Below are positions 1-5,126 of a stretch of DNA of 5,126 nucleotides, piece after piece. Origin of the DNA: Victivallales bacterium (GTDB lineage: Bacteria; Verrucomicrobiota; Lentisphaeria; Oligosphaerales; Oligosphaeraceae); NCBI GenBank assembly GCA_017615955.1, contig JAFZZD010000722.1, forward strand, positions 1-5,126, in the 5' to 3' direction. The notes under the pieces are model-generated. The model was given only the letters and a program-made list of their open reading frames with translations, was not told the DNA's origin and ran no database searches. Positions within the stretch are counted from its first letter, which is position 1, and the number at the start of each line of letters is the position of its first letter. The translations under genes and the position numbers were made by a program.

Positions 1-3
1 GAC

Positions 4-134
4 AGTGGACTGTGGACTTTGGACAGTGGACAGTGGGGTGTGCGGGGCGAAAGCCACGCGTTTTGAAGGCACAGTTCCACTGGCGGCTTTTCGAGGCAGA
101 CAGTCCACTGTCCACTGTCCACTGTCCACTTTTT
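4..134 (+). terminator. Possible rightward terminator formed by the 7-bp array
   Basis: Read on the plus strand, the long stem (4-34 with 100-130) is followed at once by TTTTT (130-134). This is the layout of an intrinsic terminator for a transcript entering from the left. For the leftward acyltransferase transcript the T-run lies on the wrong side, so there the stem would act only as a 3' structure. The long 65-nt loop and large stem are not typical of intrinsic terminators, so this is a weak inference. Confidence 0.25.
42..59. other. Small GNRA-type hairpin in the loop of the 7-bp array
   Basis: Within the loop of the large inverted repeat, GGC-GAAA-GCC (46-55) forms a three-pair stem with a GNRA-type tetraloop. 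After one G/A mismatch it is extended by GCG (42-44) pairing with CGC (57-59). It could form in RNA read from the plus strand. It is short enough to occur by chance, so no function is claimed. Confidence 0.3.
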
Positions 135-137
135 CTC

Positions 138-1367
138 CTACAAGCAATAGTTGCGTCTGTAATAAGAAGTACCGAAATGCGGCATGTCCTCCTTGAAGAG
201 CAGCATTCCGCCGCAGTGCAGTTTCCTGCCGGATTCCAGTATATGCAGCAGTGCCCGTCTTTGTGACGTGTCATGGGGATATTCCTGCCAGGATGCGTAA
301 TTGTTGTCTCGGAATAGAAAGTACATTCCGTCTGTGCCAGTGGAGCGCCATGGGTGGACATAGCATTCCCGCATGAGCCTGGCTATGTTTGAATCGGGGA
401 GCAGTGGCTCAAGGTCCCTGTTGAATATCCATGAATGGCAGCGTATGATTGGCAGCGTCTGGCCTGGCAGGTATTTCTCAAAGAAGTCGAAGGCATCGAG
501 GAATGACTGTTTGCAAAGCTCCAAGGTCATGCCCCCACCTGAAGGGATGTGCATGTCAATCAGTGGCTGGCGGGGACGGATGGCGACCTCCCATTCTGTC
601 AGCGGGTATGTGCGGCATTGCAGTTCCACGTAGCCCTTTGGGTTTACAGGATAGCCTCTTACGAAATATGGCGTCTCCACGAATGGAGATATGCTGTCGT
701 CTTCGCTTTCATTGCCAGGAATGGCGAAAAGTCCGTCCTTGTCCAGTTTGATGCCTGGACCGCATACCATCATCTTGCGTCCGTCATGCCTGTTTTTCAG
801 CGTTAGACCGCTGTGATTGTTGAGATAGACCATGAACTGGAAGCGCCCTATTCTGTATATTTCAGCTTTTAGGTAATGGCGCGACCATGCCAGGCTTCTT
901 GGATTGAAGACTGCGCTTGCGGGACCAAGGTACAATGTATTGCGCACAATGTCCATTGGAATGCCCTTTTGCGTGTAATTCTCGATGGCCGCTGGCATTA
1001 TGGCCAGGGAGACCAGCCTGTAGAAATGCCTTCCCATTCCATCTGGAAGATGCGGAATGGGAAAGCCTGTGAAGCTGCCATAGCCAGGGTCATTTGGGAT
1101 TGCGGGATGCAGGGCGAGCCTGTCGTAAACATGCCAGGCGAATGCCTTCAGCGCAGGCGAGGCGTTGATTATTTCTGCGGCATGGAGGAGTTCATCGCGC
1201 AATGCTTCCCCTGTCTGGCAGAAATCGCAGCATTGGCGGATTTGCCCTAAATAAAGGAATGGGATGTCCGTAGGCATTTCCGCCGAGGTGACGTCCCATC
1301 CCGCGAAAATCAAATCATGCTGGCTTTCGTCAAAGCCAAGTTCCTTCTGGACTTGCGTTTGATTCAT
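138..1367 (-). CDS. GNAT-like acyltransferase domain protein (NAT_N / GNAT_C, DUF5596 type)
   Basis: This 409-residue soluble protein has no signal peptide or membrane segment. It matches, from memory, the family annotated 'acyltransferase domain-containing protein', with an N-terminal N-acyltransferase-like domain (about residues 1-165) and a C-terminal GNAT-like domain (about 170-405). Family-like stretches are GIPMDIVRNTL (135-145), GRFQF (174-178), DMHIPSGGGMTLELC (271-285), SWIFNRDLEPLLPDSNI (312-328) and the end segment RALLHILESGRKLHCGGMLL (371-390). The family presumably transfers an acyl group from acyl-CoA, but I know of no substrate. The start at 1367 is favoured by a perfect AGGAGG ten bases upstream. 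The next Met (residue 31) would cut into the N-terminal domain. It overlaps the upstream regulator gene by 38 bp in another frame, so the two are almost certainly co-transcribed and may be translationally coupled. The family assignment is fairly sure; the activity is inferred. Confidence 0.75.
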   Translation of the reverse strand: MNQTQVQKELGFDESQHDLIFAGWDVTSAEMPTDIPFLYLGQIRQCCDFCQTGEALRDELLHAAEIINASPALKAFAWHVYDRLALHPAIPNDPGYGSFTGFPIPHLPDGMGRHFYRLVSLAIMPAAIENYTQKGIPMDIVRNTLYLGPASAVFNPRSLAWSRHYLKAEIYRIGRFQFMVYLNNHSGLTLKNRHDGRKMMVCGPGIKLDKDGLFAIPGNESEDDSISPFVETPYFVRGYPVNPKGYVELQCRTYPLTEWEVAIRPRQPLIDMHIPSGGGMTLELCKQSFLDAFDFFEKYLPGQTLPIIRCHSWIFNRDLEPLLPDSNIARLMRECYVHPWRSTGTDGMYFLFRDNNYASWQEYPHDTSQRRALLHILESGRKLHCGGMLLFKEDMPHFGTSYYRRNYCL

Positions 1368-2421
1368 GTTGCTTTGGCCTCCTGGAGAACGCCGATTGCC
1401 GAATCTTCAGCACGGCGGGGATCTTTGCTATGTTGATGAAGTTGTTTTCCTTATGGGCTATTGCATTGTATAGCATCTCAATGAGCTTTATGAACATGTC
1501 CTCCCGCCTGAAGTCAATGGATGTCATGCGCGGGACAGGAAATGGATTGAAGCCGTAGCTCTCCCAGTTGTTGCAGCTGATCAGGTCATATTCTTCTGGA
1601 GGAACGCCACGCTCATCCAATGCGCGGATTATGCCCGCCGAGCGGAAGTCCGATGTGGAGAAAATCACTGCGTTTCTGGGGTCTGGTATTTCCTTGCCGA
1701 AATTGTAGCCAATCTGGTCTGCCGTCATGTCTTTGTTGGAGGACTCTATTGAGATTTGCATTGAACTGGAGGGTATGCCATGGTGTTTTGCGAACATTAT
1801 GAACTTCTCTCCGAAAAGACGGATGTTGGTGTTTCCCGTCATAGATATGTAGTATTGCCTAGATAGTTTGTCGCTTATACTGCGGAATATGTCGTTCATG
1901 ACAGCGGTCAAGTCAGGCACCACTTGTATGAAGGGACGGTCAATCATTCTGTAGTCCCTGAAATACGCTATGGGCACCTTGGGCAGATTGGATGGGTTCA
2001 GGTTTACAGATGTGAGAATCCCGTCCGCCTTGCGGCCAATGGGGGAATTCAGTGAATAGACGTGCTGAAGCTGCATTCCCCTGGCTGCGCATTCACGGGT
2101 GATTATGGGGTATGTGTTCTGTTCGTAGATGACCTGGTCCTTGCGGCTTAATGCGCCTGTCTTGTTGTCCAGCAACGCGATTGTGAACTTCTTTTTGGCG
2201 GGAAGGATTCTTGTGCCTTGCCCCTTTGTGCGCACTATCAGCCCTTCCGCCGCAAGTTGCTTCAGCGCATGGTCGGCAGTCATCATTGACACGCCATATT
2301 CACGCGCAATCTCCATTGAGGTGGCAAGGCGCTGTTCAGGAGAAATCTCCCCCGAAAGAATCTTCTTGCGAAGTTCCGCTGCCACAAAGTCGATTTTGTT
2401 CTTGTACTGGTGGTATATCAT
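1330..2421 (-). CDS. GntR-family transcriptional regulator with LacI/GalR-like sensor domain
   Basis: This is a 363-residue cytoplasmic DNA-binding regulator. Residues about 4-73 are a GntR winged helix: EIAREYGV (37-44), SMMTADHALKQLAAEG (45-60) and the wing LIVRTKGQGTRI (61-72). Residues about 79-345 resemble a periplasmic-binding-protein fold of the LacI/GalR type. Landmarks are FTIALLD (79-85), KADGILTS (131-138), AVIFSTSDFRSAGIIRALDE (251-270) and RMTSIDFRREDM (298-309). This is the AraR-like layout, in which a small ligand, often a sugar, controls DNA binding. The start at 2421 keeps the whole winged helix, although no Shine-Dalgarno sequence is visible; the next Met (residue 36) would destroy the domain. 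It is the first gene of a leftward unit with the acyltransferase, so autoregulation and control of that gene are likely. It could also act on the divergent uronate genes. The ligand is unknown. Confidence 0.88.
   Translation of the reverse strand: MIYHQYKNKIDFVAAELRKKILSGEISPEQRLATSMEIAREYGVSMMTADHALKQLAAEGLIVRTKGQGTRILPAKKKFTIALLDNKTGALSRKDQVIYEQNTYPIITRECAARGMQLQHVYSLNSPIGRKADGILTSVNLNPSNLPKVPIAYFRDYRMIDRPFIQVVPDLTAVMNDIFRSISDKLSRQYYISMTGNTNIRLFGEKFIMFAKHHGIPSSSMQISIESSNKDMTADQIGYNFGKEIPDPRNAVIFSTSDFRSAGIIRALDERGVPPEEYDLISCNNWESYGFNPFPVPRMTSIDFRREDMFIKLIEMLYNAIAHKENNFINIAKIPAVLKIRQSAFSRRPKQHESNASPEGTWL
1378..1383 (-). promoter_or_regulatory. Ribosome binding site of the acyltransferase gene
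   Basis: The minus strand reads AGGAGG here, a full match to the anti-Shine-Dalgarno core, followed by ten bases and then the ATG at 1365-1367. It lies inside the 3' end of the regulator gene and decides the start of the downstream gene. Confidence 0.8.
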
Positions 2422-2503: not shown

Positions 2504-2533
2504 CCCAGTTCCCCATGAGGGCAGCACTTTGCT

Positions 2534-2701
2534 GGGACTTATGCGACTTATGCGACTTATGGGACTTATGCGACTTATGGGACTTATGGGACTTATGCGA
2601 CTGATGCGACTTATGCGACTGATGCGACTTATGCGACTGATGGGACTTATGCGATGCAATTTCCCATTAGTCGCATAAGTCCCATAAGTCCCATCAGTCC
2701 C
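2534..2701. repeat. Inverted array of 9-bp tandem units (13 direct, 4 inverted)
   Basis: Thirteen uninterrupted 9-bp units fitting GSGACTKAT run from 2534 to 2650. They alternate between GGGACTTAT, GCGACTTAT and GCGACTGAT. After 15 bases come four units in reverse orientation: ATTAGTCGC (2666-2674), ATAAGTCCC (2675-2683), ATAAGTCCC (2684-2692) and ATCAGTCCC (2693-2701). Positions 2624-2654 pair with 2671-2701, giving 27 pairs in 31 positions. The inner 15 pairs (2640-2654 with 2671-2685) are perfect, around a 16-nt loop. About ten direct units stay outside the stem. Variation is confined to two positions of the unit. No T-run follows on either strand, so it is not a standard terminator. Function unknown. 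Confidence 0.95.
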
Positions 2702-2762
2702 AGGGAGGAGTGACCGATTACCCTCCATACGGAATAACTGTGGTTGTTTTATCTGGCAATTG

Positions 2763-2835: not shown

Positions 2836-3873
2836 ATGAGCGACACTCCTGTTTGCCAAAACGGCAATAAACCCAGAAGACTGCTGCTGACTGGCGCGGC
2901 GGGCTTCATTGGATTCCATACATTCAAGAAAATGCGCTCCCTGGGATGGGACGTGCTGGGCATTGACAATGTAAACGACTACTACGATGTTTCCCTGAAA
3001 AAGGCACGTCTGGCGCAGCTGGGCTTCAAGGAGGACTATGCCACAGGCAAGATGCTGACATCGGCAGACGGCGGGCGCTTCATGATGATGTTCCTTGAAG
3101 ACAAAGACGCCCTGCCCTCGCTGTTCAAGCAGGAGGGCGGCTTCGACGTGGTGTGCAACCTGGCCGCGCAAGCAGGCGTGCGCTACAGTCTGGAGGCCCC
3201 GTTCACATACGTGGACAGCAATGTGACCGGCTTCCTGAACATCCTGGAATGCTGCCGCAACTATGGCGTGCAGCACCTGGTATATGCATCAAGTTCCAGC
3301 GTCTATGGCGAAAGCGGCAAGCCCCCATTCTCCACGGATCAGAAATGCGACGCACCAGCAAGCCTCTACGCAGCCACCAAGAAGTGCAACGAACTAATGG
3401 CGCACTGCTATACATCCCTGTTCGGCTTCCCGACCACAGGCCTCCGCTTCTTCACTGTCTATGGTCCTTGGGGACGCCCAGACATGGCGTTGTTCAAATT
3501 CACGCGTGGCATGCTGGAAGGCAAGGAAATCAGCGTCTATAACAACGGCCAGATGAAACGGGACTTCACATACGTCGATGACATAGTGGAAGGCGTTTCC
3601 CGAATTCTGGAACGCCCCGCGCTGGGCGGCGCCCGTGTCTATAACATCGGGCATGGCTCGCCAGTTGAACTGCTGGACTTCATCAAGGCAATTGAGGAAT
3701 GCACTGGCCGCAGCGCCAGGATGAAGATGATGCCAATGCAGCCAGGCGATGTGCTCACCACCTGGGCGGACACCACCGCACTGCAAAACGACTATGGCTA
3801 CACACCGACCACTGGCATCAGGGAAGGCGTCGCCTCCTTCGTAAAGTGGTATAGGGAATACTACAATATCTGA
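2836..3873 (+). CDS. UDP-glucuronate 4-epimerase (CapI-type, extended SDR)
   Basis: This cytoplasmic NAD-dependent enzyme would interconvert UDP-glucuronate and UDP-galacturonate, a precursor of capsule, O-antigen or other acidic polysaccharide. The 345 residues fit the family length (about 335-350). Visible elements are the Rossmann motif LLLTGAAGFIGFH (16-28), the NAD-ribose acid in GIDN (42-45), NLAAQAGVRYSLEAP (108-122), the catalytic serine segment YASSSSVYGES (150-160), the YAATK motif with Tyr178 and Lys182, LRFFTVYGPWGRPDMA (203-218), RDFTYVDDI (242-250) and PMQPGDV (300-306). Retention of RYS and YGPWGRPDMA favours the uronate epimerases over GalE. I chose ATG 2836 for its Shine-Dalgarno and family-like N-terminus. 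Upstream in-frame GTG 2710 and ATG 2803 would add an unrelated tail. It is first in an operon with a uronic-acid-type kinase 10 bp downstream. Family is near certain; substrate is likely. Confidence 0.9.
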   Translation: MSDTPVCQNGNKPRRLLLTGAAGFIGFHTFKKMRSLGWDVLGIDNVNDYYDVSLKKARLAQLGFKEDYATGKMLTSADGGRFMMMFLEDKDALPSLFKQEGGFDVVCNLAAQAGVRYSLEAPFTYVDSNVTGFLNILECCRNYGVQHLVYASSSSVYGESGKPPFSTDQKCDAPASLYAATKKCNELMAHCYTSLFGFPTTGLRFFTVYGPWGRPDMALFKFTRGMLEGKEISVYNNGQMKRDFTYVDDIVEGVSRILERPALGGARVYNIGHGSPVELLDFIKAIEECTGRSARMKMMPMQPGDVLTTWADTTALQNDYGYTPTTGIREGVASFVKWYREYYNI

Positions 3874-3883
3874 GGCAAGGCAA

Positions 3884-5059
3884 ATGAGAAAATGCGAAAT
3901 AATATTTGAGAAGATCTACGAGCGCCCAGCGGAAAACACTGGCTTCTGTCCATACAGAATTTGTCCTCTTGGCGCACATGTGGACCACCAGCTGGGCAAG
4001 GTTACAGGCCTGGCCCTTGACAAGGGCATCTACTTCGCCTACACTGTAAAGCACAATGGCATCGTGGAACTGCGCTCGATGAACTTCTCAAAGCGGGCAC
4101 AGTTCAGCATCAATGCAATAGAGGAACACAAGACTGGCGACTGGGCGGACTATATGCGCGGCGTCACATTGGCTCTTCAGGAGAGATTCCCCCTGCGCAG
4201 TGGCGTGGCCGGCGTGTTTGAAGGCGAACTGCCCATAGGCGGTCTTTCCTCCTCCGCTGCAGTCACCCTGGTCTATCTGGATGCGCTTTGCAAGGTCAAT
4301 GGCATCAATCTCACTGCGCAGGAAATGCTTACATTGGCAAAGAGTGCCGAAAACAAGTACGTGGGCGTGAACTGCGGTAAACTGGACCAGAGCTGCGAAC
4401 TTCTCTGCCGCAAGGAGCAGCTGCTGTATCTGGACACGAAAGACGACAGCTACGAGCTGATCCCGCAGGCAGCCAACATGCCGCCTTGGCAGATCGCGAT
4501 ATTCTTCTCTGGTCTGGAACGTTCGCTGGCAGGAACGAAATTCAATATGAGGGTGGACGAATGCCGCGCCGCCGCATACGCGCTGGAGGCATTCTCAAAC
4601 GTGGAATACGGGCGCTTTGATGAGACATTCCTCCGCAACGTGCCAAGAGCCGTGTTCGAAGAGCACAAGGAACATCTGCCCCTGAATTGGAGGAAGCGTG
4701 CCCTGCATTTCTACACAGAGCAGGACCGGGTGGAGAAGGGGGCGCAGCTTTGGCGTCAAGGTGATTTGCAAGGCTTCGGCCAGTTGATGTTCCAAAGCGG
4801 AGAATCCTCCATCGTGAACTACCAGACTGGCTCGCCCGAATTGAAAGCCCTTTACGAAATCATGCTTGAGACGCCAGGCATCTACGGCGGGCGCTTCTCA
4901 GGTGCTGGCTTCAAGGGCTGCTGCTGCGCCCTTGTAAACCCAGCATACACCCAGGAAATCGAAGCCACCGTAACCGAAAAATACCTGGCAGCCTTCCCCG
5001 AAATGAAAGGACGCTACCAGGTGACATTCTGCAACACCAGTGACGGACTTAGATCGTAG
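3884..5059 (+). CDS. GHMP sugar kinase, probable galacturonokinase-like (galactokinase superfamily)
   Basis: This 391-residue soluble kinase would phosphorylate C1 of a hexuronic acid, most likely galacturonate to galacturonate 1-phosphate, using ATP. The sugar-binding motif is YRICPLGAHVDHQ (24-36). Arg25, His32 and Asp34 are kept, but the Glu of the galactokinase GEHTDY signature is Ala31. The ATP loop is PIGGLSSSAA (117-126), the catalytic Asp is Asp168 in CGKLDQS (164-170), and the third GHMP motif is RFSGAGFKGCC (337-347). Plant galacturonokinase (Arabidopsis GalAK) carries YRICPLGAHIDHQ, GLSSSAAV, LDQS and FSGAGFRGCC as I recall them, so the match is close along the whole length. The start ATG 3884 follows the epimerase stop by 10 bp, with weak GAGG/AAGG signals, suggesting coupled translation. 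Its neighbour, a UDP-glucuronate epimerase, supports a uronic acid substrate. Glucuronate or galactose remain possible substrates. Kinase family sure; substrate inferred. Confidence 0.85.
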   Translation: MRKCEIIFEKIYERPAENTGFCPYRICPLGAHVDHQLGKVTGLALDKGIYFAYTVKHNGIVELRSMNFSKRAQFSINAIEEHKTGDWADYMRGVTLALQERFPLRSGVAGVFEGELPIGGLSSSAAVTLVYLDALCKVNGINLTAQEMLTLAKSAENKYVGVNCGKLDQSCELLCRKEQLLYLDTKDDSYELIPQAANMPPWQIAIFFSGLERSLAGTKFNMRVDECRAAAYALEAFSNVEYGRFDETFLRNVPRAVFEEHKEHLPLNWRKRALHFYTEQDRVEKGAQLWRQGDLQGFGQLMFQSGESSIVNYQTGSPELKALYEIMLETPGIYGGRFSGAGFKGCCCALVNPAYTQEIEATVTEKYLAAFPEMKGRYQVTFCNTSDGLRS

Positions 5060-5079
5060 CGCTGGGCTTCAGCCCCGCG
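5060..5079. repeat. GC-rich hairpin directly after the kinase stop
   Basis: GGGC-TTCA-GCCC (5064-5075) forms a perfect four-pair stem. After one mismatch it is extended by CGC (5060-5062) pairing with GCG (5077-5079). It begins on the base after the TAG at 5057-5059. No T-run follows, so it is not a classical intrinsic terminator. It may protect the mRNA 3' end, help Rho-dependent termination, or be a copy of an interspersed palindromic repeat. The remaining 47 bases of the window hold nothing I can identify. Confidence 0.55.
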
Positions 5080-5126
5080 ATTATCCCGCCGCCCAAGCGA
5101 CGGATTCCAAAACAAACATCCCCCTC

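What the first reader, a model, noticed from the sequence alone, without database searches (positions are those of the whole stretch)
3953..4000. Bacterial kinase with the plant galacturonokinase signature
The sugar-binding motif reads YRICPLGAHVDHQ. In galactokinases the corresponding GEHTDY Glu contacts the sugar C6 hydroxyl. Here it is Ala31, which would remove a negative charge facing a C6 carboxylate. The flanking YRICP and DHQ residues, and the FSGAGFKGCC motif, follow plant galacturonokinase rather than GalK. Automatic annotation would probably say galactokinase. If the reassignment holds, this is a bacterial uronic acid 1-kinase.
Basis: partly seen in the sequence, partly recalled or inferred. 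Interest (0 to 1): 0.7.

Follow-up and report, generated by a model that had tools for sequence, protein, structure and literature searches.

The report
Bacterial relative of plant galacturonokinase
A bacterial gene that looks like a galactose kinase belongs instead to the family of the plant enzyme that activates galacturonic acid (the acid sugar of pectin), and its neighbours suggest that bacteria recycle this sugar into nucleotide sugars; the activity itself is untested.

Summary
In detail: ORF 3884-5059 (+, 391 aa) reads YRICPLGAHVDHQ at residues 24-36 (Ala31) and FSGAGFKGCC at 338-347. It is not GalK by sequence: it misses the cut-offs of all five NCBIfam GalK models it matches, a 59-row tree splits signature-bearing kinases (plant galacturonokinase included) from GalK (100/98), and grouping the window's clade with classical GalK is rejected (AU p 8e-6). 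Plant enzymes nest inside the bacterial family (p 0.005 against). Context fits a uronate route. A short sugar-1-phosphate nucleotidyltransferase follows the kinase in 74 of the 80 best-matching loci (0 of 39 GalK loci). The window's kinase lies 10 bp after an epimerase with UDP-glucuronate 4-epimerase carboxylate residues. Best reading: galacturonate 1-kinase of a UDP-GalA/UDP-GlcA salvage route. Against or open: no assay; no nucleotidyltransferase in the window; a different epimerase (GalE in the one scanned) beside 10 of 80; 7 of 20 carriers lack GalK above cut-off; deep branching unresolved; Phe220 where plants have Tyr. The family is large, and IMG already names some members 'galactokinase/galacturonokinase'. 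New bacterial variant of a known kind.

The parts
3884..5059 (+). GHMP kinase of the galacturonokinase family (391 aa), proposed galacturonate 1-kinase
3953..3991 (+). Sugar-binding signature YRICPLGAHVDHQ (residues 24-36), Ala31 in place of the GalK Glu
4895..4924 (+). FSGAGFKGCC motif (residues 338-347)
2836..3873 (+). NAD-dependent epimerase, likely UDP-glucuronate 4-epimerase (345 aa from the ATG at 2836; start chosen here), ends 10 bp before the kinase ATG
   Evidence: keeps the Thr126-Ser127-Ser128, Thr178 and Arg185 positions of the B. cereus enzyme, with Ser for Thr126
3445..3486 (+). Epimerase motif RFFTVYGPWGRPDM holding the Thr178 and Arg185 equivalents
5060..5126 (+). 67 bp to the window end; the nucleotidyltransferase that usually follows the kinase in relatives is not seen here

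Best explanation
The gene encodes a bacterial galacturonokinase. It phosphorylates the anomeric carbon of free D-galacturonic acid with ATP. In most close relatives the product is then activated by the short nucleotidyltransferase encoded next door, probably to UDP-GalA. The UDP-glucuronate 4-epimerase encoded beside it in the window interconverts UDP-GalA and UDP-GlcA for glycan synthesis. Shown here: motif, family membership by tree, conserved gene neighbourhood, epimerase residues. Inferred: substrate of the kinase, nucleotide and sugar of the nucleotidyltransferase, direction of flow, end use, and that the window's organism has a nucleotidyltransferase elsewhere.
For: 38% identity over 392 columns to plant galacturonokinase P0121; all 7 plant rows score 199-224 bits against the window, the best of 20 GalK rows 194. 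Tree and AU tests. Residues Y24, C27, P28, A31, H35, W290, G306, G316, Y324, F338 shared by bacteria and plants and absent from the 11 classical GalKs. Nucleotidyltransferase within 200 bp downstream in 74 of 80 loci (the best-matching ones, so not independent), against 0 of 29 and 0 of 13 GalK loci, 3 places being in both sets. UDP-GlcA 4-epimerase-type gene within 2.5 kb in 31 of 80, UDP-glucose dehydrogenase within 3.5 kb in 12 of 80. The window's epimerase keeps the carboxylate-binding positions of the B. cereus enzyme (PMC7984243 and PMC12338863, passages). 13 of 20 carrier genomes have a second kinase above the GalK cut-off, and 19 of 20 have uronate isomerase UxaC (background 34 of 119 and 66 of 117).
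Against: No biochemical assay. In 10 of 80 loci the gene just upstream is a different SDR; the one scanned, L001, is GalE at 465 bits, which would also suit galactose salvage, although 9 of those 10 genomes carry the UDP-GlcA 4-epimerase type elsewhere. 7 of 20 carrier genomes have no GalK above cut-off, only weaker homologues or fragments. The window shows no nucleotidyltransferase in its last 67 bp, and none was found near the divergent L120-L122. Residue 220 is Phe in the window and 25 of 31 bacterial members but Tyr in 7 of 7 plants and 20 of 20 GalK rows. A tree in which the window's main clade branches with GalK, apart from plant and divergent members, is not rejected (p 0.18). Only the plant member is known to be characterised, so the substrate is carried over at 38% identity.
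Confidence: 0.68

Rival explanations
1. It is an unusual galactokinase: Ala31 only loosens the pocket, and kinase, nucleotidyltransferase and GalE form a GalT-free route from galactose to UDP-Gal.
For: GalE directly upstream in L001 and a similar SDR (24-27% identical to the window's) in 9 more of 80 loci, 6 of which were seen to share L001's motifs. Fold closest to GalK. 7 of 20 carrier genomes lack a GalK above cut-off. Some members may use galactose even if others do not.
Against: Tree separation 100/98 and AU rejection. 13 of 20 carrier genomes have a second kinase above the GalK cut-off, 11 of them read with a GEH motif; of the 10 GalE-type genomes 9 have one and the tenth has two fragments. 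The window's own epimerase carries uronate-binding residues.
Confidence: 0.12
2. It is a 1-kinase for a different uronic acid, chiefly D-glucuronate, feeding UDP-GlcA first.
For: The same neighbours would serve. Phe220 replaces the Tyr of plant galacturonokinase in the window and 25 of 31 bacterial members. A glucuronokinase with a nucleotidyltransferase-like domain is known in zebrafish (PMC3938481, passages).
Against: The family's characterised plant member acts on galacturonate (PMC8636097 and PMC3938481, passages); glucuronokinases are described as very different from it in sequence (PMC3938481, passage).
Confidence: 0.12
3. It phosphorylates a galacto-configured sugar with no charged or hydroxylated C6, such as L-arabinose or D-fucose, where Ala31 simply fills less space.
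For: Ala removes a polar contact without adding an obvious carboxylate ligand; no ligand residue was identified here.
Against: Residues shared with a plant enzyme characterised on galacturonate; uronate-type epimerase next door.
Confidence: 0.06

Closest known systems
Plant galacturonokinase GalAK (Arabidopsis At3g10700, EC 2.7.1.44)
   Same: PYRICPLGAHxDHQ and FSGAGF(K/R)GCC motifs, Ala at the same site, same side of the tree; Km for GalA 71 uM for the plant enzyme as given in PMC3938481 (passages)
   Different: 38% identity; Phe220 instead of Tyr; bacterial gene usually paired with a short PF00483 nucleotidyltransferase, whereas plants use a broad UDP-sugar pyrophosphorylase (PMC8636097, passages); activity unproven
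Galactokinase GalK (EC 2.7.1.6)
   Same: GHMP fold and Pfam domains; best PDB matches are GalKs
   Different: GEHTDY motif absent; below the NCBIfam GalK cut-offs; separate clade; best-scoring of 20 GalK rows 33.6% identical, worst-scoring 25.6%
UDP-glucuronate 4-epimerase (B. cereus UGAepi)
   Same: Window epimerase shares TVYGPxxRPDM with the Thr178 and Arg185 positions, the S/T-S-S patch and YxxxK
   Different: Only a 160.8-bit match to the B. cereus chain; much closer (401.7 bits) to PDB 5u4q, labelled dTDP-glucose 4,6-dehydratase
Zebrafish glucuronokinase/putative pyrophosphorylase
   Same: Uronic-acid 1-kinase coupled to a roughly 260-aa nucleotidyltransferase-like domain (PMC3938481, passages)
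   Different: Fused in one chain, glucuronate-specific, very different from GalAK in sequence (same passages)

Membership tests
Galacturonokinase (EC 2.7.1.44) | PYR(I/V)CP(L/I)GAHxDHQ with Ala at the GalK Glu site | tested here: met
Galacturonokinase (EC 2.7.1.44) | Same side of the tree as the plant enzyme, apart from GalK | tested here: met
   100/98; p 8.3e-6 against grouping with classical GalK; order of the deepest branches unresolved (p 0.18)
Galacturonokinase (EC 2.7.1.44) | Phosphorylates D-galacturonate at C1 | not testable with these tools
   needs an enzyme assay
Galactokinase GalK (EC 2.7.1.6) | GEHTDY galactose signature | tested here: not met
   N, L, E, Y in 11 of 11 classical GalKs where the window has C, P, A, H
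Galactokinase GalK (EC 2.7.1.6) | Score above curated GalK model cut-offs | tested here: not met
   217.8 of 385, 205 of 226.65, 202.2 of 443, 185.6 of 499, 117.3 of 509
Galactokinase GalK (EC 2.7.1.6) | Position inside the GalK clade | tested here: not met
UDP-glucuronate 4-epimerase (window 2836-3873) | Carboxylate-binding T/S-S-S patch, Thr178 and Arg185 equivalents | tested here: met
   alignment; residue roles from PMC7984243 and PMC12338863 passages
UDP-glucuronate 4-epimerase (window 2836-3873) | Interconverts UDP-GlcA and UDP-GalA | not testable with these tools
   needs an enzyme assay

The most novel reading that the evidence does not exclude
Herbivore-gut bacteria capture free galacturonic acid and build it directly into surface-glycan precursors through a kinase, a dedicated new GalA-1-phosphate uridylyltransferase (the PF00483 partner) and a UDP-uronate epimerase. 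The gene set is scattered patchily across Bacillota, Bacteroidota, Verrucomicrobiota and Planctomycetota, and plant galacturonokinase descends from this bacterial family.
Probability: 0.4. Interest if true: 0.65.

Novelty: new variant of a known kind. Interest (0 to 1): 0.5.

Why it matters
Free galacturonic acid is usually thought of in bacteria as a carbon source (UxaC route; recalled). A kinase route would let them recycle it straight into nucleotide sugars, as plants do. It would also correct galactokinase labels in a large bacterial family. A stable bacterial GalA kinase would be a useful tool: one group reported that the plant enzyme was unstable and too weak for making UDP-GalA (PMC7984243, passage).

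Tried and rejected

Kinase-nucleotidyltransferase fusion: a joined L006 kinase plus nucleotidyltransferase query returned, among the 120 listed, one apparent fusion, P0253 (617 aa). Its nucleotidyltransferase part starts at TENFPKPLL and lacks the preceding LAAGYATRLYPL stretch seen in L006, so it is probably a deletion or assembly artefact and is not counted as support.

Lys47 as carboxylate ligand: considered and rejected; other members have Arg or Ala there, and the Asn-type GalK homologue L097 has Lys.

Uronate isomerase enrichment: kept as soft support only. Fisher p is 6e-5 for 10 of 11 Bacteroidales carriers against 33 of 118, and 0.02 for 7 of 7 Clostridia carriers against 65 of 116; counting the 10 similar GalE-type genomes as one gives p 0.08. 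Background genomes were not screened for the kinase. In one search a regex tally of the Ala31 site failed ('?' for all 80) and was not used; the count is. One search also used 42 GalK loci in a Fisher test; 3 of them are the same places twice, so 39 is right, and that p is not used.

One of three proteins (L129) was given wrong coordinates and was kinase, not nucleotidyltransferase; it is not used.

Naming the organism: not achieved; no own genome is held, and the nearest proteins P0001, P0002 and P0004 carry no source name.

Full report
What is there. On the minus strand the window holds an NAT_N/GNAT_C acyltransferase (138-1367) and a GntR-type regulator (1330-2421). On the plus strand it holds an NAD-dependent epimerase (2836-3873 from the chosen ATG) and, 10 bp later, the kinase (3884-5059).

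Family. The kinase has the three GalK-type Pfam domains but falls below the cut-off of all five NCBIfam galactokinase models that it matches. The homologue search scores at most 8,000 candidates; all 8,000 passed E 0.001, and with the longer L006 query 7,920 of 8,000 passed E 1e-150, so the family is large. Of the 120 listed, four are 73-94% identical and the rest 62-66%; 9 are named: 4 galactokinase, 3 galactokinase/galacturonokinase (JGI), 2 GHMP kinase. Against plant galacturonokinase P0121 it is 38% identical over 392 columns.

Tree. 59 proteins: 32 bacterial members, 7 plant galacturonokinases, 20 GalK homologues (IQ-TREE, LG+C20). GalK is one side of a 100/98 branch. Plants are sister to the bacterial L092/L093 (100/95) inside the signature-bearing group. 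The window groups with P0001, P0002 and P0004 (100/100). AU tests, on groups named after the tree was seen: window clade with classical GalK rejected (p 8.3e-6); all bacterial members as one clade without plants rejected (p 0.0046); the window's main clade held with GalK against plants and divergent members not rejected (p 0.18). So separation from GalK is firm, but the order of the deepest branches is not. No glucuronokinase was in the tree.

Residues. Positions conserved in at least 90% of both bacterial (31 rows; L122 left out) and plant (7) members, and rare or absent in 11 classical GalKs, include Y24, C27, P28, A31, H35, Q36, S170, V224, W290, G306, G316, Y324 and F338. Residue 220 speaks the other way: Phe in 25 of 31 bacterial members, Tyr in 7 of 7 plants and 20 of 20 GalK rows. 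The structure model (mean pLDDT 89.7) matches GalK structures best (human GALK1 6gr2, E 3.4e-31, 26% identity); this shows the fold, not the substrate. I found no residue that clearly binds a C6 carboxylate.

Neighbours. In 74 of 80 a roughly 245-aa PF00483 nucleotidyltransferase starts within 200 bp downstream on the same strand; L040 has it 1,360 bp away; L015, L036, L056, L073 and L080 show none. It also directly follows the kinase of the more distant L090, L091, L092 and L093, and lies about 580 bp from that of L119, with one small ORF between. It was not found among the ORFs called in 17-kb loci around L120-L122. GalK controls: 0 of 29 GalK homologues and 0 of 13 GalK-scoring loci from carrier genomes, flanks up to 1.5 kb; 3 places are in both sets, so 39 distinct. 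None of the 25 NCBIfam models listed for it was reached at cut-off, so its nucleotide and sugar are unknown.

Epimerase. The window's epimerase aligns with the B. cereus UDP-glucuronate 4-epimerase chain (query 15-343). It keeps the S/T-S-S patch and the Thr178 and Arg185 positions that papers tie to carboxylate binding (PMC7984243 and PMC12338863, passages). A relative at 44% identity or more lies within 2.5 kb of the kinase in 31 of 80 loci; UDP-glucose dehydrogenase within 3.5 kb in 12 of 80; either in 34 of 80. Polysaccharide-type genes (UDP-glucose dehydrogenase, UDP-GlcNAc 2-epimerase, Polysacc_synt_C enzyme, glycosyltransferase 2, TupA-like ATP-grasp, pyruvyl transferase; Pfam) lie within six genes in 23 of 73 loci whose kinase the ORF caller kept, window included: a minority. 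On a Lactococcus garvieae plasmid the epimerase, a kinase annotated as two ORFs, the nucleotidyltransferase and a nucleotide-sugar dehydrogenase lie inside a polysaccharide cluster.

Evidence that cuts the other way. In 10 of 80 loci the upstream gene is a different SDR (24-27% identical to the window's); the one scanned, L001, is GalE at 465 bits against a cut-off of 262, and six more were seen to share its motifs. Nine of those ten genomes hold the UDP-GlcA 4-epimerase type elsewhere; over all 20 carriers examined it is 17. Of 20 carriers, 13 have a second kinase above the GalK cut-off (11 of these were read with a GEH motif, one with GNH, one not read). The other 7 have only weaker homologues, two of them partial: a GalK in two fragments in one genome and a short stretch in another. 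The galacturonokinase-type copy is below the cut-off in all 20.

Distribution and lifestyle. Relatives at E 1e-60 or better: 5 of 387 Verrucomicrobiota (read), 1 of 345 Bacteroidota, 2 of 348 Bacillota, 4 of 294 Planctomycetota (one of them L122 at 35% identity), the centre genome counted in each: rare and patchy. Phylum names follow the titles of the centre loci. Uronate isomerase is in 19 of 20 carriers, against 34 of 119 and 66 of 117 genomes of two carrier orders, over the cut-off; relatedness and habitat weaken this.

Literature. Seven searches of open-licence PMC showed, by their listings, no paper on a bacterial galacturonokinase; most subscription journals are not in that library and full texts were not read through. 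One paper reports that the plant enzyme was unstable and too weak for synthesis (PMC7984243, passage).

Verdict. A bacterial member of the galacturonokinase family, most likely a galacturonate 1-kinase acting before a nucleotidyltransferase and a UDP-uronate epimerase. Family and context are shown; substrate is inferred.

Noticed in passing
L086, L089, L094-L118: 27 of 29 GalK-homologue loci (25 from the Verrucomicrobiota search, 2 of 4 from carrier genomes G001-G004) read G-N-H, not G-E-H, at the same sugar-contact site: another group near GalK whose substrate may differ.
   Followed up: no
window 2533-2702: Tandem array of a 9-bp unit (GACTTATGC) followed by its inverted copies, able to form long hairpins, between the divergent regulator and epimerase genes.
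   Followed up: partly
window 1-36 and 103-130: 7-bp tandem repeats (GACAGTG / GTCCACT) that are inverted copies of each other.
   Followed up: no
window 1330-2421 (-): Regulator with a GntR DNA-binding domain and weak LacI-type (RbsR, EbgR) matches in its C-terminal part.
   Followed up: no
L081 8998-10174: Lactococcus garvieae plasmid copy of the kinase is annotated as two ORFs inside a polysaccharide cluster.
   Followed up: no
PDB 5u4q, against window 2836-3870: Labelled dTDP-glucose 4,6-dehydratase but carries the UDP-glucuronate 4-epimerase motif TVYGPWGRPDM; the label may be wrong.
   Followed up: no
L092, L093: Bacterial kinases that are the sister group of plant galacturonokinase in the 59-row tree (100/95), suggesting that the plant gene came from bacteria.
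   Followed up: partly
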